A stretch of DNA of 64,000 nucleotides from Pratylenchus scribneri (lineage: Eukaryota > Nematoda > Chromadorea > Rhabditida > Pratylenchidae): positions 744,001 to 808,000 of the forward strand of contig JAQSEB010000019.1 in assembly GCA_030063045.1 (NCBI GenBank), read 5' to 3'. The notes beneath the pieces are model-generated. The model was not told where the DNA came from, searched no databases, and saw nothing but the letters and a program-made list of their open reading frames with translations. Below, piece after piece: positions 20,800 to 39,366 of this stretch. Made by a program: the position numbers and the translations under genes. Every line of letters starts with the position of its first letter. Within the stretch, counting starts at the first letter, position 1.

Positions 20800-21839
20800 T
20801 CTTTATTAATATTTATCCAATAAAAAAGGCACACATTTAGGGAACAAGCTGGGACAAAAGGGGGTTGGGATTAGGACTGGCCTAGGACAAAGGAGATTTT
20901 GGGGGTTTATAAATGGGGATGAACAATTGGTGAAAAGAAGGGGAGAAAGGGGGATAAAGCATAGAAAGGGGAATTGGATCAAGAGTAGGGGATAAAAGGG
21001 GAAAGATAATAAAAGAGTAGAGATAAGGGGAAAATAGGATAGACAAGGCGAGATGCCTGGCGGCCATTCCTCATGCTCTCCCATCCAACAAGGCCGTCCG
21101 CGGCCGCAGCCTTCTTCATTGATTTGACAATGAGGAGATGGGCAATGGGCATTCTATTAATGCTCATCAGTCATCACCGTCCATTGCTGGTCCACTTCCA
21201 CTGCCATTCTTCATTCACATTCAACTTTGCTCTTTCCAAATATCTGCTCCGCGTTTTAACAATTCCGAACCATTTTTCGGCCAAAATTCCATTTTTTTCA
21301 ACCAAATTTTATTCGCCATCATCCAAATTTTGGCATTACTATACATGCAATTTTCCACATCCGATCCATCTCATTGATCAAAAATTATTGCGAAATGGAT
21401 GCGCCAAAATATTCCCTTCTTTGTTATAGTTAAAACAATCCAAAATGTGATTGTCCAAATATTTCAATTTCCATTGTTTGGCCGAACATGGCCAACATCC
21501 TTTTGACTTTCAGCGAATAAAATTCTGGTCTTTGTGGGGTCAATAGCCTGACTTGGGTAGGCTTGGGTTAGATGATGGATGACTTGGGTAAGCGTCCCTT
21601 TTCCTTGCTCGGGCACATTCACCGCTCACATTTTCATTTCCCACATTCATCCACAATCCACATCTTTTCATCCTCGACCTTTTCTATTTTTTACCCGTTG
21701 CCATTTTTATTCATTCCGATAATTATTCCGTTTACGCGATATTTTACGCGTTTTACTTTTCGCATTTGATTTTTACGTTTCATATTTTTGTTTTTCAGAA
21801 TTGTTTATTACAAATTTGTTCAACAATAAATTGTGTGTG

Positions 21840-22480
21840 ATGGGCCAAAGCAAGCCAATGGCGAATGGCCGATGCGATCAATATTTTGGCGAATTAGACG
21901 GGACGCAAACGAGATAAAAATAATTTTTTGGTTAAATGAATTTAATTTTTTTATTTTTCAGTATAATGGTGCAATGTTTGTCATTGGTTGATGCCATCAA
22001 TGTTTTGGTGAATGTTCCAGCTTGATTTAGTTGAGGTTTTGTTTTGTTTAATCATTTTTAATTAAATTTATTTCCATTAAACAATCCAAATGGACTTAAT
22101 GGCCATGGTTTGTGATGGGTGTCAAATGCCACTCGGCCGAATCAAACAGATAATAATTTTATGTGATTAAACCAATAATTTTTCATTTCTTAGGTTCGCA
22201 TCCGGTCTTGCTAATTCATTCTTTGGTTGATTTGAATTAGTATTGATTGGATGTGGGCTAAGGAATGTTTCAACGATTTTGTGCTCAACATGGTCGGGAA
22301 GTTGGCGGCCAAATATGGGTGTGAGGTTTATTCGCCTGTTTGAATCATTCATTTTATTTCTTCAGGTGTGCAAGCTGGTCAATTGGCAGCATTGGTTTGT
22401 GATCAATTTGGTTGGCTGTTTTTGGATTTTGGGCAGGGCCTTGTTGTGTGCCGCATTGTTCCAACATTGTTTATAAGGTT
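21840..22480 (+). CDS. Candidate exons of an unrecognised gene in left arm
   Basis: Plus-strand segments with coding character. One begins at about 21840 (MGQSKPMANGRCDQYFGELD) after a 3' splice-like site. A second at about 22245-22315 reads WAKECFNDFVLNMVGKLAAK. A third, after TTCTTCAG near 22366, reads VQAGQLAALVCDQFGWLF. They can be joined with plausible GT-AG introns, but no complete start-to-stop model could be built. Mirror coordinates in the right arm are about 38726-39366 on the minus strand. I do not recognise the family. Confidence 0.3.
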
Positions 22481-22695
22481 TGTTTACAATGAAAAAATTA
22501 AACAATAACAAATAAATTTTAATGAAAAAGAAATAGACTAGAAATAAATGAGTGGAAAGGGTTAGGGAAGGGATTATTTAGAAAATAGGTAATTGAATGA
22601 TAGGTAAGGAAAAAAAATATTTGATAATAGGACCTAAAAAAAAATCAATCAAATTTTCTCATCTTCCATCATCCTCTTCTCTTCTTTCTTCATCA

Positions 22696-23117
22696 TCACT
22701 GGCCTCTTTCTTCCTTCTGCTTCCTAATCTCCGCTTCTGCTTCTCTTCGTTTTCTTTCATTTTCTTCCGCTTCTTTCTTCCGAACCGCTTCTTTTGCTTT
22801 TTCTTTCATCTTTTCTTCCAATTGAATTCGTTCAATTGTTATTTCCATTCTGTTATGTAATGGTATTAACCATTGCTTTAGTTGTGCCGATTCAGGCCAA
22901 TTCAATGTCAATCTTCTTTCGCCTAGAATGGCGCTTTTTTTGTGTAAACATCCCATCCAGCTTTTCAATATTTTCTCCATCTTCTCTTCCTTCCACAATT
23001 GTTTAGGGCTGCGGCCCTGCACCCATTGGGTGAAAGCATCCAATGTGATTTCAATGTCTGGTATCTCAATAAAGTAAGAGGGTGTCCATTTATTGATGTG
23101 ATGATGCCGCACTTGAT
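22696..23117 (-). pseudogene. 3' part of ORF2, left-arm copy, cut off from its 5' part
   Basis: This minus-strand frame encodes the same last ~140 residues as the right-arm ORF2 (from QVRHHHIN through a Glu/Lys-rich coiled coil ending KQKEERGQ). At the inner arm edge it runs into unrelated sequence, so the copy has no 5' half. It carries no MITE, and its uninterrupted junction (ATCAATAAATGG) shows the empty site of the insertion seen at 36993-38113. Confidence 0.8.
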
Positions 23118-24954
23118 TTATTACGGAAAAATGCCCGGACGGAATCACGGAATCGGCCAAATTGTGGATTGGCAGGAGCAGGCACATTTTGACGACGGCG
23201 GCGGCAAACAAAAATGATGATCAAAGAGGCCAGGATTCCCACGCCCAAGGCACCCAAAACTGCCCACACCGCGATGAAGAAAACAGTGGTCACATCGAAA
23301 GTGACCCAGACATGGGGCAAGTTATTGGGATTGATGCCAGGAGGTGCGCAAATGCCGAGTTCGGGAACATCGTAACGGATGGATGTGTAACAGGAATTTG
23401 GAGGCAAACACGGCACATTGGCGCAGGTCACGTTGGAAATAAGTTCCCAAATCATTTTAAAGGAATTGAACGAATTTTATTAAAATTTTACTAAATTATG
23501 AGCTAAAATTATTATTGAAATGAATTAACGTTTGGAAAAAAATGCTCAAAAGACTAAAATTTTCGAAAAATGGTTGAAATGGAAAATACCAACCGACAGG
23601 AAACAAACATGAGTTTGGCCAAATTGAAAGTTGGAAATGAAGTGAAAATGGCCGCGAAATGAAATGAATGGTCGATTTGCCCTTCGGGGACAGATCCAAT
23701 GAAAAGGGGCAGATGCAACCAGCCAAGTTGGCGCACGACGGGCATCGGAAATGTTGAGCCATCTAAAAATATAAAAGGAGACACAAAGATTTTCCTTCTT
23801 TTTAAACTTATCTAATAGGAAAAGCAAAGCAAAAATGGGTCCCAGTGAGCAAAACTCTGAAAAATAGAGGGAAAGTAAAAAAATTGAAAATAAAATTATC
23901 TGTTTAAATTGCGCATTGTGCAGCCAAGGGCATTGTTGGGGAACATAAAGGGATCAAAGTCCAAATCGTACAAATCTGCAAAAGTTTTATTGGGATTAGC
24001 AGTGGAACAGTTGGTGAAAGTAAAGTTTGGAGGGCCCGACCAATGGATTTTGGCAAATTATAGACAATGTTAAAATGAGAGAAAATTATGTGGGGGCGTT
24101 CTTGTGCTGGCCAGCCAAAATTTTATATTCTTTTTGCCCCCACTAAAAAATTGAAAATAAAGCAATTAATCTTATTGTCTAAGCCGGCGCCGATCCTAAG
24201 AGTCGAAAGGCTATACCAATTGCTTTCTCCGATCATTCTTGCTAAAAATCCTCAGAAAACTTACCAAAAACTTTGATCCAAAAATTGAGTATTGAAAATA
24301 ATAAAAATCGTAAAACTTGCCTAATTTGTGCCTTGTTTGATTGGAATTGCCCAAGAATTGTGCAGCCATCAGCCAATTGAACCCATCGATCATTGCAACC
24401 GCCAACTGTAATTTTAATTTTAATTAATAATTAGTCAAAAAAAAAAAGGGGATAATAATAAAAAAAATAATAAAGTTTTCAAGTAATTTTTCATTTTCCC
24501 GTCTCTTTTTCGCTGTTTTATTTTTTCATTCAAATTCCTCCTAATTCCCAAAAATTTTCATTTTTCTCCTCCCCCTATTTCTTGTTGGCGGTGGTGATAA
24601 ATCGGAAAATTAATTAAATCATTCTCCTCTTTGAAAAAAAGTGGTGATTGTTTTAATTTTTGATTGAAAGTTCATTCTCCTCATTTTTGTGGTGATTGAA
24701 TCCCAAAAATAGTAATAAAAAAATATTATAAATCCATTTTTGAGCTGGAATTTACCCCGAGAGACCCAAATCCAAACGAAAGCAGTGCCACCACCCGAAG
24801 AAATATTATTCCACTTTTTCGGCCTTGTAATTGCAACTGTCTCAACTCACCAAATATCTGCAACTGCCCGGAGGGGATACTTTGCTGCTGCGTCCCCGCT
24901 GATCCAAAGCCACCAAGAAAACGTCCATTTGGCCAATATTGATCACATTGTCAA
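23118..24954 (-). pseudogene. Fragment of a multi-exon membrane-protein gene trapped between the left arm and the retroelement
   Basis: Minus-strand exons are visible at 24954-24851 (INIGQMDVFLVALDQRGRSS), 24405-24321, about 24050-23907 (PPNFTFTNCSTANPNKTFAD), a short one near 23860, about 23762-23592 (GSTFPMPVVRQLGWLHLPLF), and about 23455-23118. The last exon contains several cysteines (CANVPCLPPNSC), a hydrophobic segment (VGILASLIIIFVC), a basic stop-transfer RRRR and a cytoplasmic tail. The layout is that of a type I membrane protein. The exon ending at 24321 uses an AG|GCAAGT donor. The gene has no recognisable first exon before the retroelement, and its tail runs into arm sequence, where it meets a stop after eight foreign codons. 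Joining of the middle exons is uncertain. I do not recognise the family. Confidence 0.5.
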
Positions 24955-25234
24955 CTGAAAAATAATAATTTGATTAATAAATTGAAATCAAAATAAATTT
25001 ATTGGATTAAACTACACTAAAATATCATATCCTTATTATTTGAAAATCTCCCAATTAAAAAAAAAAGTGGATAGAAAAGAAAGATTAGAAAAAAGAAACA
25101 TTCGAAGGGAAGAAATATTAATTAAAAGGGAAATTGAATCAGTTAATAGGAACGAAAAAAGAAAAGAAAGAGAAAGAGAAAAAGGAGCGAAATTAAAGGA
25201 ATTATTAACCCCAGTAAGGAGAAATATAGAAAAA

Positions 25235-28200
25235 ATGAATGTTAGCCGAGATGAAGAAAGAGATGAAAGAACAGAAGAGGAAGAAAGAACTGAAAGGGGC
25301 CTGGCATTTTTAGCACAAAAAATTGAATTATTGGAACGAAAATTAGCTGCGGCGCCAAAAGAAAAAAGGGTGGAAACGGTGCCAAAAAATTTGACAGCAC
25401 CGCGCTATGATGGCACAACGAATTTTTGGGAATATTTGAAAAAGTTTAATATTTTCGCCACAGCCTCCGGCTGGGAAATTCCCGATTGTGCCAGAGCGCT
25501 TCCCGCACTTTTGGATGGCGACGCCTTACAAATTTATTTGAGCCTCCCAGATTTGGAAAAAAGTAATTGGAAAAATCTAACAGCAGCCATGGCAAAGCGA
25601 ACAAGCCATGCAGACCCTAAGGGATTTGCGCGGCGATGTTTGGCAAAAGCTAAGCTGCAAATAGGCGAAACAGTCACTGAATTTGGTAACAAAATTCGTG
25701 GATGGGTGGAAGATTCGATGGGGGACGTTACAAAATATACTAGTGAAGCGAGGGAAGAAACGGCCGTTGAATATTTCATTCAAGGCCTCCCCACAGACAT
25801 AAAAAGGAAACTATTTTTTATGGATAAACCAAAAACATTAAATGCCGCCATTGAAATGGCGAAAAAAGTTTGGCAAATTAAAAAGGAATTGGAAGGGGAA
25901 AACATGATTGCGGCCATAGATATGGAGGAAATAAAGGCAGAAGTCAATGCCATTAGGGTTGAAATGGACAATAAAAAAGAGGAAATAAAAAATAATGAGA
26001 GAAGAAGGGAAATGGAAAATAAAAATTGGGAACAAAGAAATTGGCAAGAAAATAGGCAAATGAATTGGAGAGGAAATAGCCAGGGAAATTTTCGTGGAAA
26101 TTGGCAAAGATATGGTCAAAATAATTGGAGAGGAGGACAAAATAATTGGGGAAATGGGCAAAACTGGAATAATAGAGGAAATTATAATAATAATAATCCA
26201 AATTTTGAACCAATTAGCAACAATTGGCGGTCAAATCGTCCATTTTATGGGAACAATCAAAGACAAAATTGGAATGGAAATAGAGCCAGAGCTCGTGGAA
26301 GAGGAAACTGGAGAGGCAGCGATCGCCAATATAAAGTGAATGTAATAAATGATGAAGGGCCAAGCAATGCTTCTGCCCCTAGGCGCTCCCCATCGCCGTT
26401 TTTCCCATTACTTTTGATTTGTACCATTTTGGCAACATTTTTTAGCCTAACATCTGGGCAATACCAAATTTGTTCCGAAAATATGCCAACCCACCCAATT
26501 TCTTTGCCAAAAATGGAGGAATGTAAAATTGAAAAAACCGAAAAAGCTGCTGAACGAAAAATTGTGCTGTTTTTGCCGATTTCAAATCCAAAAAAATTCC
26601 CAATTTTTTCTTGTTCTCGCAAAAAGATTAAAACATGTACAAACGCAGTTTTGTGGTTTTGGAAAGAGGAAGGCCCGATAAATGAAACACAATGGGAAGG
26701 TTTAGAGCCAAACGAATGTTGGGATTGGATAAAAAATAAGGAAAAGAATATGAAAAAAATAGACGAATATCGATGGGAAAATGATGCACAAATTACAGTG
26801 GAATTTGCATGGGTTGGAGAAAAGTGTTCAGAAGTGGAAAAAAGGCAAATTGAGAAGGGTGAAGGTGGAATTTTGGGTTTCGAGCTAATAACTACATGGG
26901 GAAATAATTTAAATCCTCATAAAAATTATGAAAAAATGTTAACTCGAACAATAGTTTGGGAAATCCCAAGTGAAGAATTTTGGCACACACATTCGCCGAT
27001 AGGCAAATACAATGCAGAAATTACAGAAAAAGCCGTAATTGTGGAAGAATTGGAGGCGGTGTTTGAATATGAAAAGGAGGATGACAGACATGGGATTATG
27101 GGGGTTCCGGAAAAGGCAATTAAATTAATAAATGATGCTTTTGTTATCATTTTCGAGCCCAATAAAAATCGAACAAAAAGAGAAAAAATTAAGCCAAGAC
27201 TAAGAGCCCCAAAAGTGAAAGAACAGCCACCATTACGTAATCCAGGAACCACCCCAATTCCTCCCTCAACTACAACAACTCCAAAAACTATCCCCTCTAG
27301 TACCACCTTGCCTACAACTAGGCCAAGCACCACCGTTTTGATGCCAACTACTACAAAAATTCCCTTTATAGCTAGTACCACTAAAAAACCTACAACTCAA
27401 ACTATAAAAATGCCCACAACCACAAAAATGCCTCTAACTATAACCCCAAAAATGACCATCATTTCAACCACAAAAAATCCTATAATCCTAACCACAAAAA
27501 AGCCAATAATTTCTACTACAAAAATGCCTATAACTTCAACTATAAAATTACCTACAACTCCAGTGACAAAAATTCCCATAATAACCACAAAAATGCCTAT
27601 AACCCCAAGTAAAAAGCCTGTTATAACCACAACTAAAATGCCTACCACTACAGTAGTTAATGTACTAAAAATAGAAAAAATACAAAAAGAAGAAAATGAT
27701 AGTGGGGTTGAGATTTTAAGGAAAATGGAGACCAAAACAGTCATTGAATTAAAAAAGGAAGAATATGGAAAAATGAAGGAGGAAAATGCCAAATTTAAGG
27801 AATGGGTGGACAAAATAAATGAATTGAAAAGGGAGCAAAATGGATTGAAAGATAAAATTATTGAAATTGAACGTCAAAGACGGATGACAACTGTCAGCAC
27901 TCCAGAGAGTGAAACATTGGGAAATGAATTGAGGAATGTATCTGGGAAATTTTTGGACGATATTTGGAGAGGAAAAATGGAAAAGGCAAAAGAAAGGCAA
28001 AATTTTGGGGCAGAAACAAAAAATACGAATACTCGCATAAACTATGCGCTTTATAAAATGTCGGAAGAAAGAAGGCATGATTTTGAGCAAATACAGTTAC
28101 ATGCATGCGAAAATACAAAATTTCAGCTTCAAATGGCTGGAGCTGTCCTACAAATTAATCCGACAGAAGGTGTGAGAAAAATGTTCGAAAGGGACGACAT

Positions 28201-31200
28201 AATCGGAAAATGGACCAATAAAGGACTTGAAATTGGGTTTTGTACCCAGGTGTCTCCACAAAAAATTTTCTGGGACAATAAAATAAACGAAATATGTTTC
28301 GAAAAAATGCCGGTTTTGGTGGAAAATAAAACATTGTTTGTGGAAATAAATAGCCGAAATTTAGTGGCTACGAGTAAAAAAATCGATTGCGATAAAATAA
28401 ATGTAACCAATTCGGTAAATGCCACTCAACAGGAAGAAATTGATAAAATGCGTGAGAATTTTGAAAAATCATTATCATTGGAAAAATTAGAAGGACTAAA
28501 GAAAAGAAATCCGTTCTTTTTGAAAAAAGGGGCGATTTTTGAACCGGAAACCAGCCGAATTGAAAATTCATTGGCCGAATATAGAAAAAAGTTAAATACA
28601 CTCCCTACTGGATTTTTCCGGCAAATGAAGGCACCAAATGTGCCGGAAGCCGTTGAAATAATTTTAAAAGAAGTGAAAGATAAAGTAGAGGAAACAGGAG
28701 TAATAATAAAAGAATTACCAGAAAAAGCAAGTGATTTTATAAATGATGGTATAACATGGCTAAAATCAATGAAATGGCTTGGAATTACAATTTTAATTCT
28801 AATAATCATTGGAGGAATAATATTTTTATTGGTAAAAACAAGAATTTATTGGATGGCAGGATGGCAAATTGGCCAAATGGCGGGCACAGTTCTGCAGGGA
28901 ATGTTCACTAATCGTCGGCCAAATCAAAGGGAAATTCAAGTAGCCGCAGTTAAAACAGTTGATCCATTGGAAGAAGAAGCCTTCATAATTTCATATTTGC
29001 CTCCACGTGTTTATGCCATTGTGAATGACCCAGAAAAACTGGTGAAAATCAGAGGAAAAGTGAATGGATTTGAATTAGAAATCCTTTGCGATTCATGCGC
29101 AGCAGTCTCACTTTGCAGTGAAAGACTAGCAAAAAAGTTGGGATTGAAAATATACACAGACAAACAGCCACAATTGTGTGCTGGGAATAATTTGGGAATG
29201 AATACAATTGGATACACAAGTGCTATACTTGGATTGGGAAACAAAGAATGGGAAATTTCACTCTTGGTGACAATCACAGAACATTCCCCTGGGGATGTAT
29301 TACTGGGAACGCCAGTGTTGAATTCATTAAAAGGATGCCTCGATTGGGAAGAGAAAAAAGTAAAAATTGGTGGTCAATGGACTCCTATGATTTTGGCAAT
29401 TCAAGCCAACAAAAAGAAAATGAAAATAAAAATTCAGAATGATGTAATTCTAGAGCCAAGAACAGACAATTTAATGTGGGGAAAAGTTGATGACGAACTT
29501 GAAGAAGGGCAAATTTATTTGGTGGAGGAATTAGCTAATAATTATGATATGCTGAAAGTTGGAAAAACCATTTGCATTCCAGGAAAAGAAGGATTAGTTC
29601 CTCTTCGACTATTAAATATGGGCATTTCTCCATTAAAATTGTTTAAAAATTCATTTGTGGCTCAATTGGAAGAAATTGAAGAACAAAAACCTGGCGTTTT
29701 TGTTACAGAAATACAAAAAGAAAATGATTATTTGCCCAAAGAATTGGATTGGATGGAAAAAGTGCCAGGAGAAGAAAGGAAAAATGAAAAAACATTGGAA
29801 GAACAAATAAATTTAGAAGGTTGCACGTTAAGTGAGAATGGAAAGAAGGAATTGATCAACATTATCAAAAAACATGAAAAAGTTTTTGGCGGAAAAGATA
29901 AAAGTTTGGGACTTTATAATGGACCCATTGTCCACAGAATTGATTTGGAAGCCGGTTGCGCACCGGTCAGACAAAAAGCATACAGAATTGCCCCTTCACA
30001 AAGGGAAGAAGTGGAAAAGCAATTAAAATCGATGCTTGATCAGGAAATTATAAGGCCATCGGCTTCCGAATTTGCGAGCCCCATAGTGTTGGTGCCCAAA
30101 AAGGGCGGCACATGGCGATTCGCTATCGATTATAGAGCCCTAAATAAGATTACACAGAAACAGGCATACCATCTGCCTAATATTACAGAATTATTGGACA
30201 CTGTAGGAGCCAAAAAATTCTATACTACGGTGGATTTAGCCGCCGGGTATCATCAAATTCCCTTGCGCGAAGAAGATGTGAAAAAAACAGCGTTCATAAC
30301 GCATTGCGGCCTCTTCGAATTTTTGAGGCTTCCGTTTGGATTAGCTTCGGCGCCATCCACATTTCAACGCATTATGGAAAATATCAGAGGGGAAATGATG
30401 GAAAAATTGGCAAAACACAGGGAAAAAATGACCGCATGTATGCTTTGCTATTTGGATGACATTATATTAGGCTCAATCGAAGAAGGGGAACATTTGGAAC
30501 AATTGGATGCCATGTTGGGAATTTTAGAAAAAACAGGATTGACATTAAAAATTGAAAAATGCACATTTGCACAAAGTCAGATAAAATATTTGGGCTTCAT
30601 ATTGAGCCAAGAAGGTATACAAGCAGATCCGGCACAAACCGCAGTAATTCAGAAATTTGATAAGCCAAAAAACATCCACGAACTCCGCTCGCTCGTTGGG
30701 GCGCTATCGTACTTTAGAAGATATGTCCCAAATTTTGGACAAATCGCGCACCCACTTACATCCTTAATGAAAAAAGAAACAGAGGAAAAGATTGAAGAAT
30801 GTTGGGGAAAAGAAGAAGAGGAAGCATTGGAAATTTTAAAATTCTTAATGCAAACACCCCCCGTTTTGAAAAGCCCAAATTTTAAAGAGCCATTTGAAAT
30901 AGAAACTGATGCCAGTAATTCGGCAATTGCGGCTGTTTTGCTGCAAAGTAAACACCCAATTATATATAGTTCGCGATGCTTGAATAAACACGAAAAAAAT
31001 TGGCACGTTAATGAGAAGGAAGCATTAGCTATCATATTTGCAGTGAAGGAGTACGAACCGTACATATTGTCGGCTCCTCAAACTACAGTTTGGACAGATA
31101 ACATAGCTTTATGTGCCATGTCAAGACAAAAAGGACTAAAAGGCCGACTTTTGAAGTACCAAATGGCAATTCAAAGTTTTAGAATTGAAGTGAAGCACAG

Positions 31201-34200
31201 ATCCGGCAAAAGTAACCGGTTAGCTGACTATATGTCACGCTACTTAAATTGGAAACAGGAAAATAAAAATGAGGAAGAAACAAATAAAATAAAAATTGAA
31301 GCAATCAATGTGAATAGTGAAATGATGAAAATTATGAATGACCAAAAAATAAATATAACATTGGAAAAAATTGCGGATGAACAAAAGAAAGTTAAAGAAT
31401 TAGCCGATTTGTTTAGAGCAATAAAATGGAAAAAATTTCCGGATGAGGAACAATATAAAAGGAAATTAAAAGAGAAAGTGAAAGAACACATAATAATTGA
31501 TGGGGCTATTTTTCACAAAAATGAGGAAGGAATGACTCGTTTAATAATTCCATTTGGATTGAGAGAAAAAATATTGGAGGAAATGCATTCAAACCCAATG
31601 CAAGGAGGACATATGGGTTGGGAAAAAACATTTGAAAAATTAAAGAAAAGATTTATTTGGGATGGCATGAAGGAAGACACTAAAAATTATGTGAAAAGCT
31701 GTGAAATTTGTCAATTTAGAAAAATTGAAAGTGGCGATAAAAAAGCGCTCCCAACAAAACCAATTCAAGCCCCAAGCAGGCCTTGGCAACGCTTACATAT
31801 GGATATTTTAGGGCCACTACCCATAACTTCAAAAAATAATCGATACATCTTGATGACTATCGATTCTTTTTCAAAATGGACACAGGGAATTCCCATAAAA
31901 AAGCAGGATGCTCCAACAATTTGCGATGCATTTATTAAAGAAGTGATTTTACAAAAAGGGGTGCCAGAAAATATTGTGACGGATCAGGGACGCCAATTCA
32001 TAGGCGAAATTTTTCAAGAAATGTCAAAAATATTTGGATTCAAACATGATGTTAGCATGCCGTATCATCAATCGGCAAACGGACAAATAGAGAGATTGAA
32101 TGGCATAATAGCCACAATAATCGCAGGAAATGATGGAAAATATGAATGGGATATTGCGCTTCCCTTTGCACTTTTTGCATATAATTGCTCAGTAAATTCG
32201 AGCACAAATGAAACACCATTTTTCGCTATGCATTTGAGAGAGGCCTTGATGCCTACGGATTTGTTGACACACAAAATTGGAAATGGAATTAATGGAGACC
32301 TAACTTGGTACTCCGAAGAAATGATAAAAGTTGCGGAAAAAACATGGTCAATCATGAAACAAAACATTGAAAAAGCGCAAAATAAATATAAACAGGATAA
32401 TGACAAAAGTAGGAAGGCAGAAGAAAGGGAATTTGCAATTGGAGAATTAATTTTGGTTCAAAAAGAAAGAAATATTGAAAAATTTGGGAAAAGATGGAAT
32501 GGACCGTTCTTGGTTGTTGGTATTGAAAAAGAGAAGGACAATTTAATTCTAAAATCGGTTGATGGAAGAGAAAGATTGGAAAAAGTAAGCATGCAAAAAT
32601 GTAAAAAATACAAAAAGGCAGCAATGTTGCCAATGAGGTCTTCTGATGCCTTGAAGGAAAAATATTTTTTGATGGACCCGAATATTGAAGAAGAGGCGGA
32701 TGAGGAAGAAGAAAGGAAGGGAAAAGAAAAGAAAATATATATGGACAAAAATATTGAGGAATCAGATTCGGAATCTGAAAAGGAAACTCAAAAACAAGAA
32801 GGTCTTGAAGACCAAATGCCAAAAATATTCATGATTACAATGAAAAATAATAAAAAATCGGAACCGAAAGAGTTAGAAATGAAAATGAATGACCTCTCAT
32901 TAAAAGAGGAAAGGATTGAAAGGCCCCTTGAGGTAACAACTTCAGCAAAAAAATTTAATATAATATGGAGAGGGGCAAAAGTTGTTGCAAATTGGTATCC
33001 AAATAAATCAAAACCATTTATTGAATGCCCGAAGACATTAATGAGTGGCTCTAAATTAGCCAAGAAAGAGGAATTCTATTGCCGGATTAAAAAACCGGGG
33101 AAACCGGGGGAAGGATGGTCAAATATATTGAAAGTGAAAACAAATGACAATTTGAATAATATATGCTTCGGATCAGAAGCAAAGGAGGAAATTGATAAAA
33201 TGAATTGTGCATTGAGATGGTGTGGAAAAGGAGAAGGAAAAAAAGGACATAAATTTCAATTTTGCTATAAGGGAAATGGAAAGTACACAATGTTAACATG
33301 CATAACAGATGGGTTGCCAGAAAATTTTGAAGAATCGGGAAGTGAATGCAAAAATCAAAAAATAATAAAAAGAAAACCGGATTTGGATGGAATAGAAAGA
33401 AATAAATTTTGCAAAATTAATTGGAATGGAAAAGCCAGGAAAGGGATATGGTTTCCGGAAGAAGATTGTGTTGAAATCGGATGGCCAGAAAATTTATCAC
33501 ACGGACTAAAAATAGAAAACGCAAGAGTAAAAAATAAATGCTGGATCATTCATCCAGATGGACGATGCTCGCAACCATTGAATGCCACTATGGGCAATTT
33601 TAATAGAATATGGTTTGGCACGAAAGCCACCAAAGAAATTGGAAAATTGAACATTCATTTTGAAAATGGACTGGATACAATTAAAAAATTTTGGGATAAA
33701 GAAAAAGAAGCATTTACAACATTGGAAATTGTCTTTAAAAATCCCAGTGAAAACAGGGAGAAATTAAACAAAAATGGGAAAAAGAAAAACGAAAATCCGT
33801 TGACCTTAAAAAGGTCGTTGGAATTAGTAAAAGTAAAAATTTTTTGGCTGGACCAAATTAGGCCAGCATATTGGAAGCCAGTTGATGGAATTGAAGAATG
33901 CCCATTAAAATTAATAGACATTACTAAAGCCAGATTGGAAGGTTATGAATTTGAACAATTATACGCATGGATAATAATCCGGAATCCAAATAATATGAAA
34001 ATGTCCTATCCAATACGATTTGTGGTCAATGATACTGAAACATTGAAAATTGGAGACAAATCAATAAAAGAATTGGGAAAATTGGGATTGAATGAAAGGG
34101 ATGGAAGATTTTGGTGGAAAAAGAATAAAATATGTACAAATCCTGAATTTTTATATTTGACTCAATCGATGATGCCCAAAACGAGCAAAATCGGATGGAA

Positions 34201-35128
34201 AAATAAAATATGGGAAGCTGAATGGGACATTGATCAGTCAGAAAATATTTTAATTCCTGCTGAAAATAATGAAGAAGAAAGAGAATTTCCAATAAAAATT
34301 TCAAATGAAATTGAGGATTTGTCGTGGTCGTGGGAACTGACAGCCAAAATGACCAGTACAGTTCAAAAAATAAAGTTGGGCATAAAGGCTTTCACGACCT
34401 TGATTGGATCAAAAATAAGGCTAAATATGGATAATGGAGAATGGGAATATTATAGGCGAATGAAAAAAGAATTTATCCCAACAATAAAGGAAATTAAAAG
34501 CAAAACGAATGCCGAAAGTGACATTGAAAGCTTGAGCGAATCACTCGAAAGTGAAGGAAAGTTGAAAAACAGAATGAGAATGATCATTGAAGGTGTTGAA
34601 CGATGGGGATTTACCCCAGGAATGAAAGTGTCATTGGATGACGTTACAACTATTCCTATTAATTGGTTAGATGGAAGCTGGAAAGTTCACAAAGATAAAA
34701 AGTTTTCGTGTTACGGCATGGAACTGGACAGTTATGTGCGCGCGGTTGATGCATCATTTTTTGAAGGAAAAGATTGGCCTAATTTTGAAAGACTGTACTT
34801 GGCTAAAACTGCGGAGATGCAAATCAGTTTTTGGTGGCTGGAAACATTTGGCACTTTTTATAAATGGACGCGGAGAAATGAAAAAGAGGATATGCTAATA
34901 AGCTGCGTGGAGATTGATGGAAAAAAGATTGAAGATGTACAATATATTCCAGCAATGAAAATTGAAAAATGGAACGAAAATTGGGAAGAACCTAAGGAAG
35001 AGATGAGGGAAGATGATGAAGAGGATGATTTTGAGAATGTAAATTTGCCAAAAACCAACCAAATAACCATCCATATCCCCATCGAACAACCGGGGCCATC
35101 CAAACAATGCAAGGGCACAAGCCAATGA
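25235..35128 (+). CDS. Giant single-ORF retroelement polyprotein: gag - envelope-like - protease - RT - RNase H - integrase - repeat extension
   Basis: One frame of about 3300 codons without introns or stops. The frame is open from 25040, but the first ATG is at 25235. Order: Lys/Glu coiled coil; gag capsid-like region (25400-25910); Asn/Arg/Gly/Trp-rich basic stretch in place of a CCHC knuckle (26030-26340); envelope-like glycoprotein (26397-28850); aspartic protease (29030-29400); Ty3/gypsy RT with YLDD at 30449-30460; RNase H; integrase with HHCC zinc finger, D-D-E triad and GPF motif (31580-32620); about 830 residues of C-terminal extension. All RT, RNase H and integrase catalytic residues are present, so the copy could be active. 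The protease has DSC where DSG/DTG is usual. Metavirids normally run gag-pol-env, so an envelope-like unit between gag and protease is unusual. No LTR, primer-binding site or polypurine tract was recognised around it. Confidence 0.9.
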   Translation: MNVSRDEERDERTEEEERTERGLAFLAQKIELLERKLAAAPKEKRVETVPKNLTAPRYDGTTNFWEYLKKFNIFATASGWEIPDCARALPALLDGDALQIYLSLPDLEKSNWKNLTAAMAKRTSHADPKGFARRCLAKAKLQIGETVTEFGNKIRGWVEDSMGDVTKYTSEAREETAVEYFIQGLPTDIKRKLFFMDKPKTLNAAIEMAKKVWQIKKELEGENMIAAIDMEEIKAEVNAIRVEMDNKKEEIKNNERRREMENKNWEQRNWQENRQMNWRGNSQGNFRGNWQRYGQNNWRGGQNNWGNGQNWNNRGNYNNNNPNFEPISNNWRSNRPFYGNNQRQNWNGNRARARGRGNWRGSDRQYKVNVINDEGPSNASAPRRSPSPFFPLLLICTILATFFSLTSGQYQICSENMPTHPISLPKMEECKIEKTEKAAERKIVLFLPISNPKKFPIFSCSRKKIKTCTNAVLWFWKEEGPINETQWEGLEPNECWDWIKNKEKNMKKIDEYRWENDAQITVEFAWVGEKCSEVEKRQIEKGEGGILGFELITTWGNNLNPHKNYEKMLTRTIVWEIPSEEFWHTHSPIGKYNAEITEKAVIVEELEAVFEYEKEDDRHGIMGVPEKAIKLINDAFVIIFEPNKNRTKREKIKPRLRAPKVKEQPPLRNPGTTPIPPSTTTTPKTIPSSTTLPTTRPSTTVLMPTTTKIPFIASTTKKPTTQTIKMPTTTKMPLTITPKMTIISTTKNPIILTTKKPIISTTKMPITSTIKLPTTPVTKIPIITTKMPITPSKKPVITTTKMPTTTVVNVLKIEKIQKEENDSGVEILRKMETKTVIELKKEEYGKMKEENAKFKEWVDKINELKREQNGLKDKIIEIERQRRMTTVSTPESETLGNELRNVSGKFLDDIWRGKMEKAKERQNFGAETKNTNTRINYALYKMSEERRHDFEQIQLHACENTKFQLQMAGAVLQINPTEGVRKMFERDDIIGKWTNKGLEIGFCTQVSPQKIFWDNKINEICFEKMPVLVENKTLFVEINSRNLVATSKKIDCDKINVTNSVNATQQEEIDKMRENFEKSLSLEKLEGLKKRNPFFLKKGAIFEPETSRIENSLAEYRKKLNTLPTGFFRQMKAPNVPEAVEIILKEVKDKVEETGVIIKELPEKASDFINDGITWLKSMKWLGITILILIIIGGIIFLLVKTRIYWMAGWQIGQMAGTVLQGMFTNRRPNQREIQVAAVKTVDPLEEEAFIISYLPPRVYAIVNDPEKLVKIRGKVNGFELEILCDSCAAVSLCSERLAKKLGLKIYTDKQPQLCAGNNLGMNTIGYTSAILGLGNKEWEISLLVTITEHSPGDVLLGTPVLNSLKGCLDWEEKKVKIGGQWTPMILAIQANKKKMKIKIQNDVILEPRTDNLMWGKVDDELEEGQIYLVEELANNYDMLKVGKTICIPGKEGLVPLRLLNMGISPLKLFKNSFVAQLEEIEEQKPGVFVTEIQKENDYLPKELDWMEKVPGEERKNEKTLEEQINLEGCTLSENGKKELINIIKKHEKVFGGKDKSLGLYNGPIVHRIDLEAGCAPVRQKAYRIAPSQREEVEKQLKSMLDQEIIRPSASEFASPIVLVPKKGGTWRFAIDYRALNKITQKQAYHLPNITELLDTVGAKKFYTTVDLAAGYHQIPLREEDVKKTAFITHCGLFEFLRLPFGLASAPSTFQRIMENIRGEMMEKLAKHREKMTACMLCYLDDIILGSIEEGEHLEQLDAMLGILEKTGLTLKIEKCTFAQSQIKYLGFILSQEGIQADPAQTAVIQKFDKPKNIHELRSLVGALSYFRRYVPNFGQIAHPLTSLMKKETEEKIEECWGKEEEEALEILKFLMQTPPVLKSPNFKEPFEIETDASNSAIAAVLLQSKHPIIYSSRCLNKHEKNWHVNEKEALAIIFAVKEYEPYILSAPQTTVWTDNIALCAMSRQKGLKGRLLKYQMAIQSFRIEVKHRSGKSNRLADYMSRYLNWKQENKNEEETNKIKIEAINVNSEMMKIMNDQKINITLEKIADEQKKVKELADLFRAIKWKKFPDEEQYKRKLKEKVKEHIIIDGAIFHKNEEGMTRLIIPFGLREKILEEMHSNPMQGGHMGWEKTFEKLKKRFIWDGMKEDTKNYVKSCEICQFRKIESGDKKALPTKPIQAPSRPWQRLHMDILGPLPITSKNNRYILMTIDSFSKWTQGIPIKKQDAPTICDAFIKEVILQKGVPENIVTDQGRQFIGEIFQEMSKIFGFKHDVSMPYHQSANGQIERLNGIIATIIAGNDGKYEWDIALPFALFAYNCSVNSSTNETPFFAMHLREALMPTDLLTHKIGNGINGDLTWYSEEMIKVAEKTWSIMKQNIEKAQNKYKQDNDKSRKAEEREFAIGELILVQKERNIEKFGKRWNGPFLVVGIEKEKDNLILKSVDGRERLEKVSMQKCKKYKKAAMLPMRSSDALKEKYFLMDPNIEEEADEEEERKGKEKKIYMDKNIEESDSESEKETQKQEGLEDQMPKIFMITMKNNKKSEPKELEMKMNDLSLKEERIERPLEVTTSAKKFNIIWRGAKVVANWYPNKSKPFIECPKTLMSGSKLAKKEEFYCRIKKPGKPGEGWSNILKVKTNDNLNNICFGSEAKEEIDKMNCALRWCGKGEGKKGHKFQFCYKGNGKYTMLTCITDGLPENFEESGSECKNQKIIKRKPDLDGIERNKFCKINWNGKARKGIWFPEEDCVEIGWPENLSHGLKIENARVKNKCWIIHPDGRCSQPLNATMGNFNRIWFGTKATKEIGKLNIHFENGLDTIKKFWDKEKEAFTTLEIVFKNPSENREKLNKNGKKKNENPLTLKRSLELVKVKIFWLDQIRPAYWKPVDGIEECPLKLIDITKARLEGYEFEQLYAWIIIRNPNNMKMSYPIRFVVNDTETLKIGDKSIKELGKLGLNERDGRFWWKKNKICTNPEFLYLTQSMMPKTSKIGWKNKIWEAEWDIDQSENILIPAENNEEEREFPIKISNEIEDLSWSWELTAKMTSTVQKIKLGIKAFTTLIGSKIRLNMDNGEWEYYRRMKKEFIPTIKEIKSKTNAESDIESLSESLESEGKLKNRMRMIIEGVERWGFTPGMKVSLDDVTTIPINWLDGSWKVHKDKKFSCYGMELDSYVRAVDASFFEGKDWPNFERLYLAKTAEMQISFWWLETFGTFYKWTRRNEKEDMLISCVEIDGKKIEDVQYIPAMKIEKWNENWEEPKEEMREDDEEDDFENVNLPKTNQITIHIPIEQPGPSKQCKGTSQ
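26397..28850 (+). other. Envelope-like glycoprotein module inside the polyprotein
   Basis: The module opens with a signal-peptide-like hydrophobic stretch (FFPLLLICTILATFFSLTSG). A cysteine-containing ectodomain follows, then a furin-type site (NRTKREK, about 27165-27188), a long Thr/Pro-rich mucin-like segment (27240-27660), a coiled-coil region (27700-27890), a second cysteine-containing domain with N-x-S/T sites, and a strong transmembrane helix (ITILILIIIGGIIFLLV, about 28785-28838) ahead of the protease. This is the architecture of a class of viral or retroviral surface proteins. Which fusion-protein class it belongs to cannot be judged by eye. It could also be a non-fusogenic membrane anchor. 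Confidence 0.6.
29030..32620 (+). other. pol region of Ty3/gypsy type: protease, RT, RNase H, integrase
   Basis: Protease: LCDSCAAVS at 29084-29110 and the second motif LLGTPVL near 29305. RT: fingers motif RFAIDYRALNK, palm TVDLAAGYHQIPL, LPFGLASAPSTFQ, YLDD, and thumb LRSLVGALSYFRRY. RNase H: ETDAS, NEKEALAI, WTDNIAL and RLADYMSR carry the D-E-D-D residues. Integrase: H-x-H...CEIC zinc finger near 31583-31715, DILGPLP, VTDQGRQF, GQIERLNG, then the GPFLVVG motif near 32502. The RT and the downstream GPY/F-type motif place it with Ty3/gypsy rather than BEL/Pao or Copia. Confidence 0.92.
32940..34165 (+). other. Three diverged tandem modules in the C-terminal extension
   Basis: After integrase and an acidic linker, a unit of roughly 150 residues repeats three times. 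Each starts with a W-x(n)-W-x-P strand followed by ECP/GWPENL: IIWRGAKVVANWYP near 32958, KINWNGKARKGIWFP near 33414, VKIFWLDQIRPAYWKP near 33832. Each later has a (F/I)G-x-x-(A/S)-x-KE(I/L) helix: FGSEAKEEIDK, FGTKATKEIGK, IGDKSIKELGK. A weaker fourth start (INWLDGSWKV) lies near 34660. No known domain was recognised. The spacing suggests an internally duplicated binding domain specific to this element. Confidence 0.55.
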
Positions 35129-35382: not shown

Positions 35383-38300
35383 ATGGATAATGAAGTTTGG
35401 CTGCTGGATCCTTGTGAAGAAGAATTGGACTATGATGAAGAAGTGGAAGAGGAAAAACAACAAAATAATTCGAATAATAGAAAGGAAAAACAAAAAGAAG
35501 AAAGCGAAAAGGAAGAAAGCGAAAATGAGGAAAAAGAAACGGATATACATGGAAATGAATGGAAGCCAGAAGGAAGATGGATTCCCAAAAACATTGCCGA
35601 AAAGAAGAAAATTCCCAAAAGGAAACATTGGGATGATAATGAAAGCATGGAACGGAAAAGCTTTTTAAATAAGCCAGAACAAAAAAGGCAAAAATTAACA
35701 CTTGATGAATGGTTGAGAAGCGATCAAGAATTGCAAATAAATAATTTGCCTTGGCTATCAAATGCCGAATTGATTGGTCTGGGGAAAAGCGGAAATAACA
35801 TACAGATAATGAAAAGGGAAAAAAGCGCTGGAAACATATTGTTCCTGCGAGCAACTTATGCATTGGTGAAAAAGCATGCGTTGAGAATGACAGAAAATGA
35901 GGATGAAAACAAAAAAGAGGAATGGGAAGAAAAAGAAAGAAAGAATGATCCGATCAACGAATTGAATCCTAATTTGGACAGGAATAAGAAAAAATTGTTT
36001 GAAGAAGAAAAAGAAGGAGCCTTGAGAATGATGAAGAGAAGCATCGGAAGCATTGATAAAAACAATCAGAAGGAAACAGAAAAATTTGAAATGGGAAGAA
36101 AACAAAGAGACGTGAACGCATTGATGCAAAAATCGTTGGAAGAAAAGGAAAAAAGCGGAAAGGAAATTGAAAAAGAAATTGAAGAAAGCAGACGAATAAT
36201 GCACAGGAAACGCTTGGATAATATGGAGAAAAAGCGGAACAATTTATTAGTCCAATTGGAAATTGAAAATGAAAGAAATTGGGGGAACAAAAAGGAATAT
36301 AATAGCGGAGGACGATTTGTGAAAGGAAGAAACGATGTAAGAAGAAGAGATGAAAATCGGAATTGGAGACAGAATGAAAATAGAAATGGAATCAAATCAG
36401 TAAGGATGGAAGACGAAAAAGAGAAGCAACACATAGAAAAAGACGAAGAAGAAAGGAAGGAAGAGAAGAATACGAATTCAACAAGCAAATTGCTTGAGGA
36501 AAAGCCCGATGGCAAAACGAGCAAACAATTGAATAATTCCTGCAGCATTGTAGAAGAATTGAAGAAATTAGAAGAAATAATTAAAGAAAGGAATGATGAG
36601 AATAGGAAGAAAGAAGAAAACAAAAGGAAGAAAGATGAAGAGAAAATATTAAAAGGAAATAAAAGTGGATCAGAAAAAGAAAGTCTTGATGAAAGATTGA
36701 AAAAGCTAAAAGAGAGAATTGAATTAGGCAGTGGTGCCGGACAAACAATTCAAAGTCGGTATGATTACCACCGCTCACCGACCCCACCCAGGCCTGAAAT
36801 CATCCCATTGGAGGAAGAACCGACAATTAACATTGATTATGTTTGCAACTGCACCGTGTTGGCTGACGAAATTCTTGACCGATCAGGAACTAATGTGCCA
36901 AAAGTTTTCGATGGAATTAGGGGGAGGCCCGTTCCATCTATTTTCCATGCTTTGTGTTTGGACTATCAAGTGCGGCATCATCACATCAATAAGGCCCTGT
37001 ACAGACTTGGTGACAGGTATCACCTCACCACGCTATTTTCTTTCTCTATTTCTTGCCTCACAAGTGGTGAGTGGTTGGTGTACATACTTTTTCCCGCCCT
37101 CTTGTGAGTTGTGAGGCTCACATAGTGAGTCGTTGCGAATGCCTTCACCAATTTTTTTAAACCGGTTTTTCTCATCAATTTCGTGGCCTAATCTCGTTCA
37201 AATTAATTCCATATAAAGTAAATCGACTATGGAGAATCCAAAAATGAAATCAATTTTGAAATTTGAAAACATGGATATATGATAAGCGGATTTGGATATA
37301 AAATGAGCTATAAAAATGGAAAAGATGAACATAGGAAATTGCTTTTCACATATTTTGTAGTCCTTTTTCTCCTCTTTCCAACAAGCTATGCAACATCGAA
37401 TTTGGTCAACTACATGGCGAGTTAGCGGCTCTGGAAATTTGCATATTCCTGACATTCTGGAGGCCATAACTTTTTTATTTGACGACCGATTTACAAAATT
37501 TTTTTATATTCTTATTCTACTCGACGAGCCCTATCCAATGATGTATAGAACATGGCGTTTGACGTTCACAGGAAACCGGTTTAAATTTTGGTTCAAAACC
37601 TTGGCAGGGACAAGAAGCAGTTTGACGAAAATTTCTCCTTTTATTTTTAAAATATTCCCCATTTTTTTCTGATCATTTTTCACTATCACATCATTGGGAT
37701 TGGCCGGTGTTTTCCATCAAAACATGGGTGGTGAGGCGTTCATTTTAATTATTTTCAATTGCATTTTTCTCGAAAGTGGATGGATGAAAAATTCTGAAAA
37801 AAATTTCTAAAAATATTTAAAAATATGCTTAACAATATTGGAATAACAATGGGGCTATTTGGTACCATGGTTGTATTGATACACAAGTGGTGACAAGTGC
37901 AGAAAGGCTCACACATTTTTTCTTCCCTTCACCAAAAAAGTATGTACGCATTTTTTGGTGACAGAGTCACAATTTTGACTCGCTCACACTCTGCCGGAAA
38001 GGGGTGTGGCCTCACCAAGTATATACGCGAACGCCTCACCAAAGTGTGATTGGGCCACCACTCACTTTGTGAGGCTCACATGTGACTCTGTCACAAAAAG
38101 TATGTACATGGCCTAAATGGACACCCTCTTACTTTATTGAGATACCAGACATTGAAATCACATTGGATGCTTTCACCCAATGGGTGCAGGGCCGCAGCCC
38201 TAAACAATTGTGGAAGGAAGAGAAGATGGAGAAAATATTGAAAAGCTGGATGGGATGTTTACACAAAAAAAGCGCCATTCTAGGCGAAAGAAGATTGACA

Positions 38301-38510
38301 TTGAATTGGCCTGAATCGGCACAACTAAAGCAATGGTTAATACCATTACATAACAGAATGGAAATAACAATTGAACGAATTCAATTGGAAGAAAAGATGA
38401 AAGAAAAAGCAAAAGAAGCGGTTCGGAAGAAAGAAGCGGAAGAAAATGAAAGAAAACGAAGAGAAGCAGAAGCGGAGATTAGGAAGCAGAAGGAAGAAAG
38501 AGGCCAGTGA
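35383..38510 (+). CDS. ORF2 of the element: charged coiled-coil protein interrupted by a MITE
   Basis: The frame starts at ATG 35383 (MDNEVWLLDPCEEELDYDEE). It encodes an acidic N-terminus, a long Lys/Glu/Arg/Asn-rich region predicted to be coiled coil or disordered, and a more ordered stretch near 36740-36992 (IDYVCNCTVLADEILDRSG). At 36992 the frame enters a 1121-bp TAA-flanked MITE and stops at 37107. The original continuation resumes at 38114-38510 (WTPSYFIEIPDIEITL to KQKEERGQ), as the uninterrupted left-arm copy proves. ORF2 crosses the inner arm edge at 36965, so the right arm is the native context and the left arm is the derived copy. The sequence gives no known domain. A role as an accessory or nucleic-acid-binding protein is only a guess. 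Confidence 0.65.
36993..38113. mobile_element. 1121-bp MITE with TAA target-site duplication, present only in the right arm
   Basis: Termini are inverted: GGCCCTGTACAGACTTGGTG at the left and, reverse complemented from the right, GGCCATGTACATACTTTTTG. The flanking TAA is duplicated (36990-36992 and 38114-38116), whereas the left arm has a single TAA at the same site. Subterminal GTGAG/CTCAC-rich repeats are frequent. A 3-bp TAA/TTA duplication with GG-starting ends is typical of PIF/Harbinger-type DNA transposons. No transposase is encoded, so the element is non-autonomous. Confidence 0.88.
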
Positions 38511-38725
38511 TGATGAAGAAAGAAGAGAAGAGGATGATGGAAGATGAGAAAATTTGATTGATTTTTTTTTAGGTCCTATTATCAAATATTTTTTTTCCTT
38601 ACCTATCATTCAATTACCTATTTTCTAAATAATCCCTTCCCTAACCCTTTCCACTCATTTATTTCTAGTCTATTTCTTTTTCATTAAAATTTATTTGTTA
38701 TTGTTTAATTTTTTCATTGTAAACA

Positions 38726-39366
38726 AACCTTATAAACAATGTTGGAACAATGCGGCACACAACAAGGCCCTGCCCAAAATCCAAAAACAGCCAACCAAAT
38801 TGATCACAAACCAATGCTGCCAATTGACCAGCTTGCACACCTGAAGAAATAAAATGAATGATTCAAACAGGCGAATAAACCTCACACCCATATTTGGCCG
38901 CCAACTTCCCGACCATGTTGAGCACAAAATCGTTGAAACATTCCTTAGCCCACATCCAATCAATACTAATTCAAATCAACCAAAGAATGAATTAGCAAGA
39001 CCGGATGCGAACCTAAGAAATGAAAAATTATTGGTTTAATCACATAAAATTATTATCTGTTTGATTCGGCCGAGTGGCATTTGACACCCATCACAAACCA
39101 TGGCCATTAAGTCCATTTGGATTGTTTAATGGAAATAAATTTAATTAAAAATGATTAAACAAAACAAAACCTCAACTAAATCAAGCTGGAACATTCACCA
39201 AAACATTGATGGCATCAACCAATGACAAACATTGCACCATTATACTGAAAAATAAAAAAATTAAATTCATTTAACCAAAAAATTATTTTTATCTCGTTTG
39301 CGTCCCGTCTAATTCGCCAAAATATTGATCGCATCGGCCATTCGCCATTGGCTTGCTTTGGCCCAT
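38726..39366 (-). CDS. Candidate exons of an unrecognised gene in right arm
   Basis: Mirror copy of the candidate exons at 21840-22480 in the left arm, identical where compared. The same reservations apply: coding-like segments with possible GT-AG introns but no complete model. If real, the gene runs towards ORF2, so the two would be convergent in this arm. Confidence 0.28.

What the first reader, a model, noticed from the sequence alone, without database searches (positions are those of the whole stretch)
25040..35128. Single-frame polyprotein with the order gag - envelope-like - pol - repeat extension
Metavirids with envelope genes normally place env after pol, often on a spliced mRNA. Here a signal-peptide-like stretch, ectodomain, RTKR cleavage site, mucin-like segment and transmembrane helix all lie between the gag-like region and the protease, in one uninterrupted frame. 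Topologically this would put gag and pol on the cytosolic side of a membrane-threaded polyprotein, with a signal sequence in the interior, which is unusual.
Basis: partly seen in the sequence, partly recalled or inferred. Interest (0 to 1): 0.9.

Follow-up and report, generated by a model that had tools for sequence, protein, structure and literature searches.

The report
Gag–Env–Pol polyprotein retroelement in a nematode
A nematode genome holds dozens of related virus-like jumping genes whose single long reading frame runs capsid, then a predicted herpesvirus-gB-like membrane-fusion protein, then the copying enzymes, so that the protein would likely be threaded through a membrane as it is made, an order unlike the standard one in which the envelope comes last.

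Summary
Confirmed, and it is a clade. The window frame is open from 24986 to 35128 (first ATG 25235) and runs Gag, signal-like stretch, ectodomain, Thr-rich segment, TM helix, protease, RT, RNase H, integrase, extension. The RT is Ty3-like. The middle segment is a class III fusogen by profile: the window and all 21 aligned relatives match Pfam Monjiviricetes_fusion, and its core picks out herpesvirus gB structures. Of 68 scored places for that family in this genome, 62 have a scored RT within 6 kb downstream and none upstream; in 53 fusogen and RT share one frame. At least one other is BEL/Pao-like with the fusogen 3'. Env is under purifying selection. Three relatives have LTRs and target duplications (16.5-17.3 kb); the window copy lost its 5' LTR to an inverted duplication. 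Also found: P[ST]AP on the predicted cytosolic side in 16 of 21 copies (not the window's), and a conserved antisense membrane-protein ORF in the leader. ER threading is inferred. Against it, 10 of 21 copies (not the window) have acceptor-like sites in the Gag tail, more than expected, so spliced Env messages remain possible. No RNA data; structure prediction failed. My searches showed no published case; preprints were not covered.

The parts
25235..26395 (+). Gag: capsid-like part, then Asn/Arg/Gly-rich nucleocapsid-like tail without zinc knuckles (some relatives have CCHC knuckles)
   Evidence: (PF03732 E 2.9e-4, below curated cut-off, 25505-25789)
26396..26458 (+). internal signal-peptide-like hydrophobic stretch with a cleavable TSG|Q motif; no Met in the 100 residues before it
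   Evidence: hydropathy and motif only; no signal predictor available
26459..27181 (+). N-terminal Cys-conserved ectodomain of Env ending in RTKR; an RX[KR]R site lies here in 26 of 31 Env pieces
   Evidence: no match among solved structures
27242..27664 (+). Thr-rich, mucin-like segment, weakly constrained
27872..27883 (+). second basic (furin-like) site RQRR just before the fusogen core; such a second site in 12 of 31 Env pieces
   Evidence: enzyme recognition recalled, not tested
28025..28402 (+). class III fusogen core (PF24664 Monjiviricetes_fusion; herpesvirus gB-like)
28778..28846 (+). Env transmembrane helix
29048..29323 (+). aspartic protease
   Evidence: PF13975 E 6.3e-6, just below curated cut-off
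30092..30604 (+). Ty3-type reverse transcriptase
30803..31180 (+). RNase H
31550..32068 (+). integrase, H2C2 and rve core
33056..35128 (+). C-terminal extension of unknown function (no Pfam, no PDB match; the piece boundary is mine)
35383..38510 (+). second ORF downstream of pol, preceded by TTTGCAG, broken here by a 1121-bp insertion at 36993-38113; a relative without that insertion exists (C205)
23117..23455 (-). antisense ORF in the 5' leader, small Cys-bearing single-TM protein, cut short here by the rearrangement
40133..40441 (+). 3' LTR
20765..21073 (-). inverted copy of the 3' LTR, in the left arm
17365..23114 (-). left arm: inverted duplicate of the element's 3' end and its flank, in place of the 5' LTR and about 545 bp of leader
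38114..43841 (+). right arm (original copy of the inverted duplication)

Best explanation
This is a Ty3-type LTR retroelement clade of a nematode that encodes Gag, a predicted class III fusion glycoprotein and Pol, in that order, in one uninterrupted frame, and it likely makes its particle from one membrane-threaded Gag-Env-Pol polyprotein. Shown: the order, the single frame, LTRs and target duplications in relatives, purifying selection on Env, and the gB-like core by profile. Inferred: ribosomes making the unspliced message reach the Env signal stretch after Gag, are taken to the ER, and place the ectodomain in the lumen; the Env TM stops transfer, so protease, RT and integrase end up on the cytosolic side again. 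Signal peptidase would free the ectodomain and leave Gag with a hydrophobic tail in the membrane; the aspartic protease would cut Env from Pol; furin-like cuts would mature Env; and in lineages that carry P[ST]AP on the cytosolic side the ESCRT budding machinery would be called in. The capsid-envelope-enzymes layout works like a flavivirus polyprotein (recalled analogy, no relationship claimed).
For: Frame and domains. RT nearest Ty3 RT, E 7.1e-50. Fusogen: PF24664 in 22 of 22 members, PF00606 gB in 7 of 22; 40 of the 46 PDB rows at E up to 10 are gB-type, among them the 31 best. Order: 68 PF24664 places scored of 85 candidates, 62 over cut-off; against 144 scored RT matches, 62 of 68 have an RT within 6 kb downstream and 0 of 68 upstream; 53 of 68 share one frame with the RT. 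Selection: Env dN/dS 0.059-0.287 in 16 of 17 pairs, one saturated. LTR pairs in 3 of 5 relatives (307, 311, 349 bp; 100, 100, 99.7%), TG..CA ends, 4-bp (C205 4-5) target duplications, PBS-like TGGAGGTC beside the 5' LTR. No Met in the 100 residues before the signal stretch in 8 of 21 copies, window included. P[ST]AP: 13 of 21 copies within 90 residues after the TM, 3 of 21 in the Gag tail, 0 in 16,938 lumenal residues; expected 0.06, 0.03, 0.75.
Against: No RNA or protein data. Acceptor-like sites lie in the last 300 nt of the Gag tail in 10 of 21 copies (14 sites; 4.84 expected when synonymous codons are shuffled; 10 of 14 spell Phe-Gln), and in 9 of those 10 an in-frame Met follows before or at the start of the signal stretch; so a spliced or SL-trans-spliced Env-Pol message is plausible in those lineages. 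The window shows neither feature. Signal and TM calls rest on hydropathy. The single-sequence model is useless (pLDDT 35). The N-terminal Env half matches no solved structure. 5 of 21 copies, the window among them, have no P[ST]AP. 9 of 68 places have Env and RT in different frames, as decayed copies would. 6 of 64 RTs at 30-40% identity carry the fusogen, while 10 of 29 at 45-50% and 10 of 10 at 40-45% show none in my lists, so a single origin is not shown.
Confidence: 0.6

Rival explanations
1. The DNA order is gag-env-pol, but splicing separates the products: an Env-Pol message is made by cis- or SL-trans-splicing into the Gag tail, or Env is an in-frame intron for Gag-Pol.
For: Nematode host with SL1. 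Acceptor-like sites in the Gag tail in 10 of 21 copies, 14 against 4.84 expected, with an in-frame Met after them in 9 of 10. Acceptors near the protease in 8 of 21. Cer1 makes CERV from a spliced mRNA sharing the polyprotein frame (PMC10309623, passages). TTTGCAG precedes ORF2.
Against: A donor above threshold near the Gag tail in only 3 of 21 copies, all close kin, so excision of Env from Gag-Pol is unlikely; the window has no strong site at either boundary (home-made score from recalled consensus). 11 of 21 copies have no acceptor in the Gag tail. Env has no stop codon at its end, so even a spliced message would run on into Pol, and the unspliced genome would still encode Gag-Env-Pol.
Confidence: 0.26
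2. The middle segment is an intracellular membrane anchor that places Gag and Pol on a membrane, and no longer fuses membranes.
For: The topology would tether both neighbours. A related element with no clear Env match (L073) still has a TM protein in the same place.
Against: Both ectodomain parts are more constrained than the Thr-rich linker, and the gB-like core and basic sites are kept.
Confidence: 0.1
3. The middle segment is an unrelated mucin-like host membrane protein or a dead insertion.
For: Low-complexity Thr repeats; no homologue among 7,987 scored proteins (the words came from the Env's first 500 residues, much of it Thr-rich).
Against: PF24664 in 22 of 22, gB rows in the PDB, dN/dS well under 1, conserved over dozens of elements.
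Confidence: 0.02
4. The element is a terminal-inverted-repeat or DIRS-like mobile element rather than an LTR element.
For: Perfect 5728-bp inverted arms in the window.
Against: Three relatives have direct LTRs with target duplications and no such arms; the left arm is a copy of the 3' end standing where the 5' LTR should be; integrase present.
Confidence: 0.02

Closest known systems
Metaviridae (Ty3/gypsy), env-bearing members such as Errantivirus (gypsy)
   Same: Ty3-type RT, PR-RT-RH-IN order, LTRs and PBS, an Env
   Different: Env lies between Gag and protease in the same frame; the ICTV profile says Env is encoded downstream of the integrase (PMC7879559, whole text)
Atlas virus of the hookworm Ancylostoma (Belpaoviridae)
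   Same: nematode LTR element, one uninterrupted polyprotein including a captured viral fusogen (PMC9094657, passages)
   Different: order Gag-Pol-Env, class II Gc fusogen, BEL/Pao RT
Tas (Ascaris) and Anakin (mosquito), Pao elements
   Same: Env with weak similarity to herpesvirus gB (Tas) or from a chuvirus (Anakin) (PMC9094657 and PMC7642597, passages)
   Different: Pao lineage; the Roo, Tas and Cer-7 envelope-like proteins are described as downstream of the polyprotein (PMC7642597)
Cer1 of C. elegans
   Same: LTR element of a nematode with a long polyprotein frame and an extra regulator (PMC10309623, passages)
   Different: its extra ORF does not resemble Env; the protein, CERV, comes from a spliced mRNA and is needed for RNA export
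Flavivirus polyprotein (recalled)
   Same: capsid, then ER-threaded glycoproteins, then enzymes in one frame; capsid carries the signal anchor
   Different: no relationship; analogy of layout only

Membership tests
Metaviridae (Ty3/gypsy) | RT closest to the Ty3 lineage | tested here: met
   best PDB chain Ty3 RT, E 7.1e-50; solved structures only, no tree
Metaviridae (Ty3/gypsy) | domain order PR-RT-RNase H-IN | tested here: met
Metaviridae (Ty3/gypsy) | LTRs, PBS after the 5' LTR, target duplication | tested here: met
   met in 3 of 5 related copies whose flanks I read; the window copy itself lacks its 5' LTR
Metaviridae (Ty3/gypsy) | env, where present, downstream of integrase (ICTV profile) | tested here: not met
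   0 of 68 scored fusogen places have a scored RT upstream within 6 kb; this describes known members rather than ancestry, so I file it as a variant
Errantivirus | errantivirus-type Env and RT clade | not tested
   no errantivirus reference sequences at hand; no RT tree built
Belpaoviridae | BEL/Pao domains DUF1758, DUF1759, DUF5641 | tested here: not met
   absent from the window pieces; present in a separate element on C132
Class III fusogens (gB, Monjiviricetes G) | sequence profile of the core | tested here: met
Class III fusogens (gB, Monjiviricetes G) | three-dimensional class III fold with fusion loops | tested here: inconclusive
   model pLDDT 35; N-terminal half has no PDB match
DIRS / TIR elements | inverted termini as part of the element, tyrosine recombinase instead of a DDE integrase | tested here: not met
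   direct LTRs in relatives; rve integrase and no recombinase family in the six proteins scanned

The most novel reading that the evidence does not exclude
A retrovirus lineage that builds its particle from one ER-threaded Gag-Env-Pol polyprotein: Gag is anchored by the Env signal peptide, Pol by the Env TM, budding is driven by P[ST]AP on the cytosolic side, and the same element encodes a second membrane protein from its antisense strand in the leader. It removes the need for a separate env message or a frameshift.
Probability: 0.45. Interest if true: 0.86.

Novelty: new variant of a known kind. Interest (0 to 1): 0.78.

Why it matters
Env capture is held to be how retrotransposons become retroviruses, and in the cases cited above the new gene was added at the 3' end. 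Here a captured class III fusogen sits between Gag and Pol in one frame, in dozens of copies that diverge widely yet stay under selection. That makes a concrete prediction about membrane topology, stoichiometry and assembly that isolated fragments can test, and it offers a natural comparison, since at least one BEL/Pao-like element in the same genome carries a relative of the fusogen in the usual place.

Tried and rejected
Inverted-repeat element: rejected, since relatives have direct LTRs. Structure prediction of Env alone: mean pLDDT 35, discarded; no fold search was run, and the second job was not used because my relatives came from the fetch from genomes, which is not among the sources that tool names. 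Homologues among public proteins: none of 7,987 scored. IMG/VR scan: 13 pattern matches, no relative. N-terminal Env against the PDB: none. Gag, extension and antisense ORF against the PDB: two chance-level rows for Gag, none for the others. NCBIfam on Gag, extension, ORF2 and antisense ORF: nothing near cut-off. Rfam and tRNA scans of the window: nothing. RT tree: not built; replaced by ranking RT matches. ORF2 spread by protein search: not completed; DNA search only. Literature: the listings and the phrase one search (0 papers) showed no gag-env-pol element; preprints are not held.
Full report
What is in the window. One frame is open from 24986 to 35128 on the + strand, 3380 codons; the first ATG is at 25235 and leaves 3297 aa. 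Read in pieces and scanned against Pfam, it gives a Gag match (PF03732, E 2.9e-4, below cut-off), an aspartic protease (PF13975, just below cut-off), RT, RNase H, and integrase (H2C2 and rve) in Ty3 order. The RT's best solved relative is Ty3 RT (E 7.1e-50). Between Gag and protease lie a signal-like stretch (26396-26458), a Cys-bearing ectodomain, RTKR (27170), a Thr-rich segment, RQRR (27872), a conserved core and a TM helix (28778-28846). Over 31 Env pieces an RX[KR]R site near residue 260 is present in 26 and a second one before the core in 12. The last 690 residues, after the integrase, have no Pfam or PDB match; close matches to them are confined to the window's subfamily, with weaker partial matches elsewhere (22 rows).

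The host. An SL1 RNA search found 41 matches, all below Rfam's cut-off; the two I read carry the 22-base leader GGTTTAATTACCCAAGTTTGAG or its complement, which I recall as nematode SL1. The species was not identified.

The window copy is rearranged. It lies between perfect inverted arms of 5728 bp. I read the flanks of five relatives; three (C16, C6, C205) have direct LTR pairs of 307, 311 and 349 bp at 100, 100 and 99.7% identity, while C166 and C181 gave no clear pair. The three have TG..CA ends, target duplications of 4 bp (4-5 in C205) and a PBS-like sequence right after the 5' LTR; their total lengths are 16.5 to 17.3 kb. In the window the 3' LTR is at 40133-40441; the 5' LTR and about 545 bp of leader are gone, and an inverted copy of the 3' end stands in their place. 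A 1121-bp insertion (36993-38113, TAA duplicated) sits in the right arm only, so the two arms are real and distinct.

The order is a clade property. The Env segment has 91 matches in this genome (97 candidates, 55 scored), many in frames of 2000-3600 codons. An independent search with Pfam PF24664 scored 68 places of 85 candidates, 62 over the cut-off; none in 14 control genomes, a weak control since those named elsewhere are prokaryotes. Against the 144 RT matches (194 candidates), 62 of 68 have an RT within 6 kb downstream on the same strand and 0 of 68 upstream. With the earlier, capped RT list (150 of 409 candidates scored) the count was 58 of 68 within 4 kb. In 53 of 68 Env and RT lie in one frame, judged by equal frame length (I gave the 62 RTs that pair with an Env, of the 144); 9 have them in different frames; 6 have no RT listed. 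Of those six, one has protease and integrase downstream with the RT missing (C23), C33 and C181 are further relatives of the window Env, and three (C8, C37, C132) have a fusogen followed by a stop and no RT in the next 2.6 kb. Upstream of the one of these that I read (C132) are BEL/Pao domains DUF1759, DUF1758, rve and DUF5641, with no RT found in the piece; I infer from their like downstream sequence that the other two are of the same kind.

RT kinship. Of 144 RT matches to the window's RT, an Env lies upstream in 40 of 41 at 50% identity or more, 19 of 29 at 45-50%, 0 of 10 at 40-45% and 6 of 64 at 30-40% (labels from the 68 PF24664 places plus 3 places). One of the unlabelled 45-50% cases (L073) shows a TM protein and then a protease-like motif in an open frame in the same place; its match to the Env profiles is borderline at best (E 0.0069, 0.026 and 0.12 in a two-sequence search). 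A second piece (L074, 41% group) showed an open stretch without a TM that I take for Gag. No RT tree was built, so one capture or several is open.

What the middle segment is. PF24664 matches 22 of 22 aligned members (best 6.5e-15) and herpesvirus gB (PF00606) 7 of 22 (best 9.6e-9, below that family's cut-off in the two shown); 14 other families match one or two members each. A profile of the core alone gives 46 PDB rows at E up to 10; 40 are gB-type, among them the 31 best (best 8.6e-4), and 6 are ribosomal or sundry chance rows. Most are named glycoprotein B; that ORF8, GP110 and BALF4 are also gB is recalled. The full-length profile gives the same picture at weaker E with more chance rows. 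The second basic site lies just before this core; I recall that the gB furin site is placed likewise. The N-terminal half has no solved relative, and the single-sequence model failed, so fold and fusion loops are unproven.

Selection. Over 17 pairs of copies Env dN/dS is 0.059-0.287 in 16 and saturated in one. Where a value was obtained the N-terminal and C-terminal parts are at 0-0.17 except one N-terminal 0.29, and the Thr-rich linker at 0.24-0.78 except one nearly identical pair at 1.2 on very few changes. In 30 of 31 Env pieces there is no stop; 16 of 21 longer pieces (200 codons before Env to 300 after) are open throughout.

Expression. No RNA data exist here. With a home-made splice score from recalled consensus, a strong donor near the Gag tail is present in 3 of 21 copies (close kin), acceptors from 600 nt before to 100 nt after the Env start in 12 of 21, and near the protease in 8 of 21; the window has none at either place. 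A closer look tells against the simplest reading in part of the clade: 10 of 21 copies have acceptor-like sites in the last 300 nt of the Gag tail, 14 sites against 4.84 expected with shuffled synonymous codons; 10 of the 14 spell Phe-Gln, and in 9 of the 10 copies an in-frame Met follows before or at the start of the signal stretch. A spliced Env-Pol message is therefore plausible there. In 8 of 21 copies, window included, no Met lies within 100 residues before the signal stretch. Env has no stop codon at its end, so any message holding it runs on into Pol. For the window's lineage translation straight through remains the simplest reading.

Cytosolic P[ST]AP. The motif occurs once in 13 of 21 copies within 90 residues after the TM, once in 3 of 21 in the Gag tail, and never in 16,938 lumenal residues; shuffling predicts 0.06, 0.03 and 0.75 (for L044 the TM was set by hand). 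The copies are related, so these are not independent events, but the placements differ. Its role as an ESCRT late domain is recalled. The window lacks it, and so do the stretches printed for four close copies.

Antisense ORF. The leader carries an antisense ORF for a small Cys-bearing single-TM protein (window 23117-23455). It has 22 matches in the genome, down to 30% identity; 20 of 22 lie 5' of an Env of this clade and on the opposite strand (against 33 Env places taken); of the other two, one lies beside an ORF2 fragment (C10) and one near no Env in my list. In 6 comparisons of 4 copies its pN/pS is 0.13-0.56, the lowest of the six frames each time, on small counts. It is probably a gene; transcription is unknown.

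Compared with what is known. The ICTV profile places Env downstream of integrase (PMC7879559, whole text). Atlas virus is a single Gag-Pol-Env frame (PMC9094657, passages); Tas and Anakin are Pao elements (PMC7642597, passages); Cer1 has a spliced extra protein (PMC10309623, passages); Troyka has no Env (PMC12440569, passages). The listings of searches and the phrase one search (0 papers) showed no gag-env-pol element; preprints were not held, so novelty is provisional.

Verdict. A real and conserved new arrangement of a known kind of element. The order is shown; the membrane-threaded polyprotein is the best-supported mechanism, at about three in five, with spliced Env-Pol messages as the main rival in some lineages.

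Noticed in passing
23117-23455 (-): Antisense ORF for a small membrane protein in the 5' leader, with 22 matches in the genome down to 30% identity, 20 of them beside elements of this clade.
   Followed up: yes
36993-38113: 1121-bp insertion with GGCC..GGCC ends and TAA duplicated, in the right arm only; looks like a Harbinger-type non-autonomous element (recalled).
   Followed up: partly
17365-18291, 42913-44333: Fold-back repeat with many inverted pairs elsewhere in the genome; the left-arm breakpoint lies near its centre.
   Followed up: partly
19506-20402, 40827-41695: 28-bp tandem repeat array in both arms; the same stretch matches many other places in the genome.
   Followed up: no
35383-38510: Second ORF after pol, highly charged, broken here by an insertion, preceded by a splice-acceptor-like TTTGCAG; possibly a CERV-like regulator.
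   Followed up: partly
L067, L069, L070, L072: Three places with a Monjiviricetes-type fusogen that ends in a stop and is followed by small ORFs; the one read upstream (C132) is BEL/Pao-like with the fusogen at the 3' end.
   Followed up: partly
L073: Related element in which a TM protein with at best borderline similarity to this Env occupies the same place before a protease-like motif.
   Followed up: partly
Gag tails of L043, L044, L046, L048-L050, L055, L057, L059, L061: Excess of acceptor-like TTTCAG sites, mostly over Phe-Gln codons, upstream of the Env signal stretch.
   Followed up: partly
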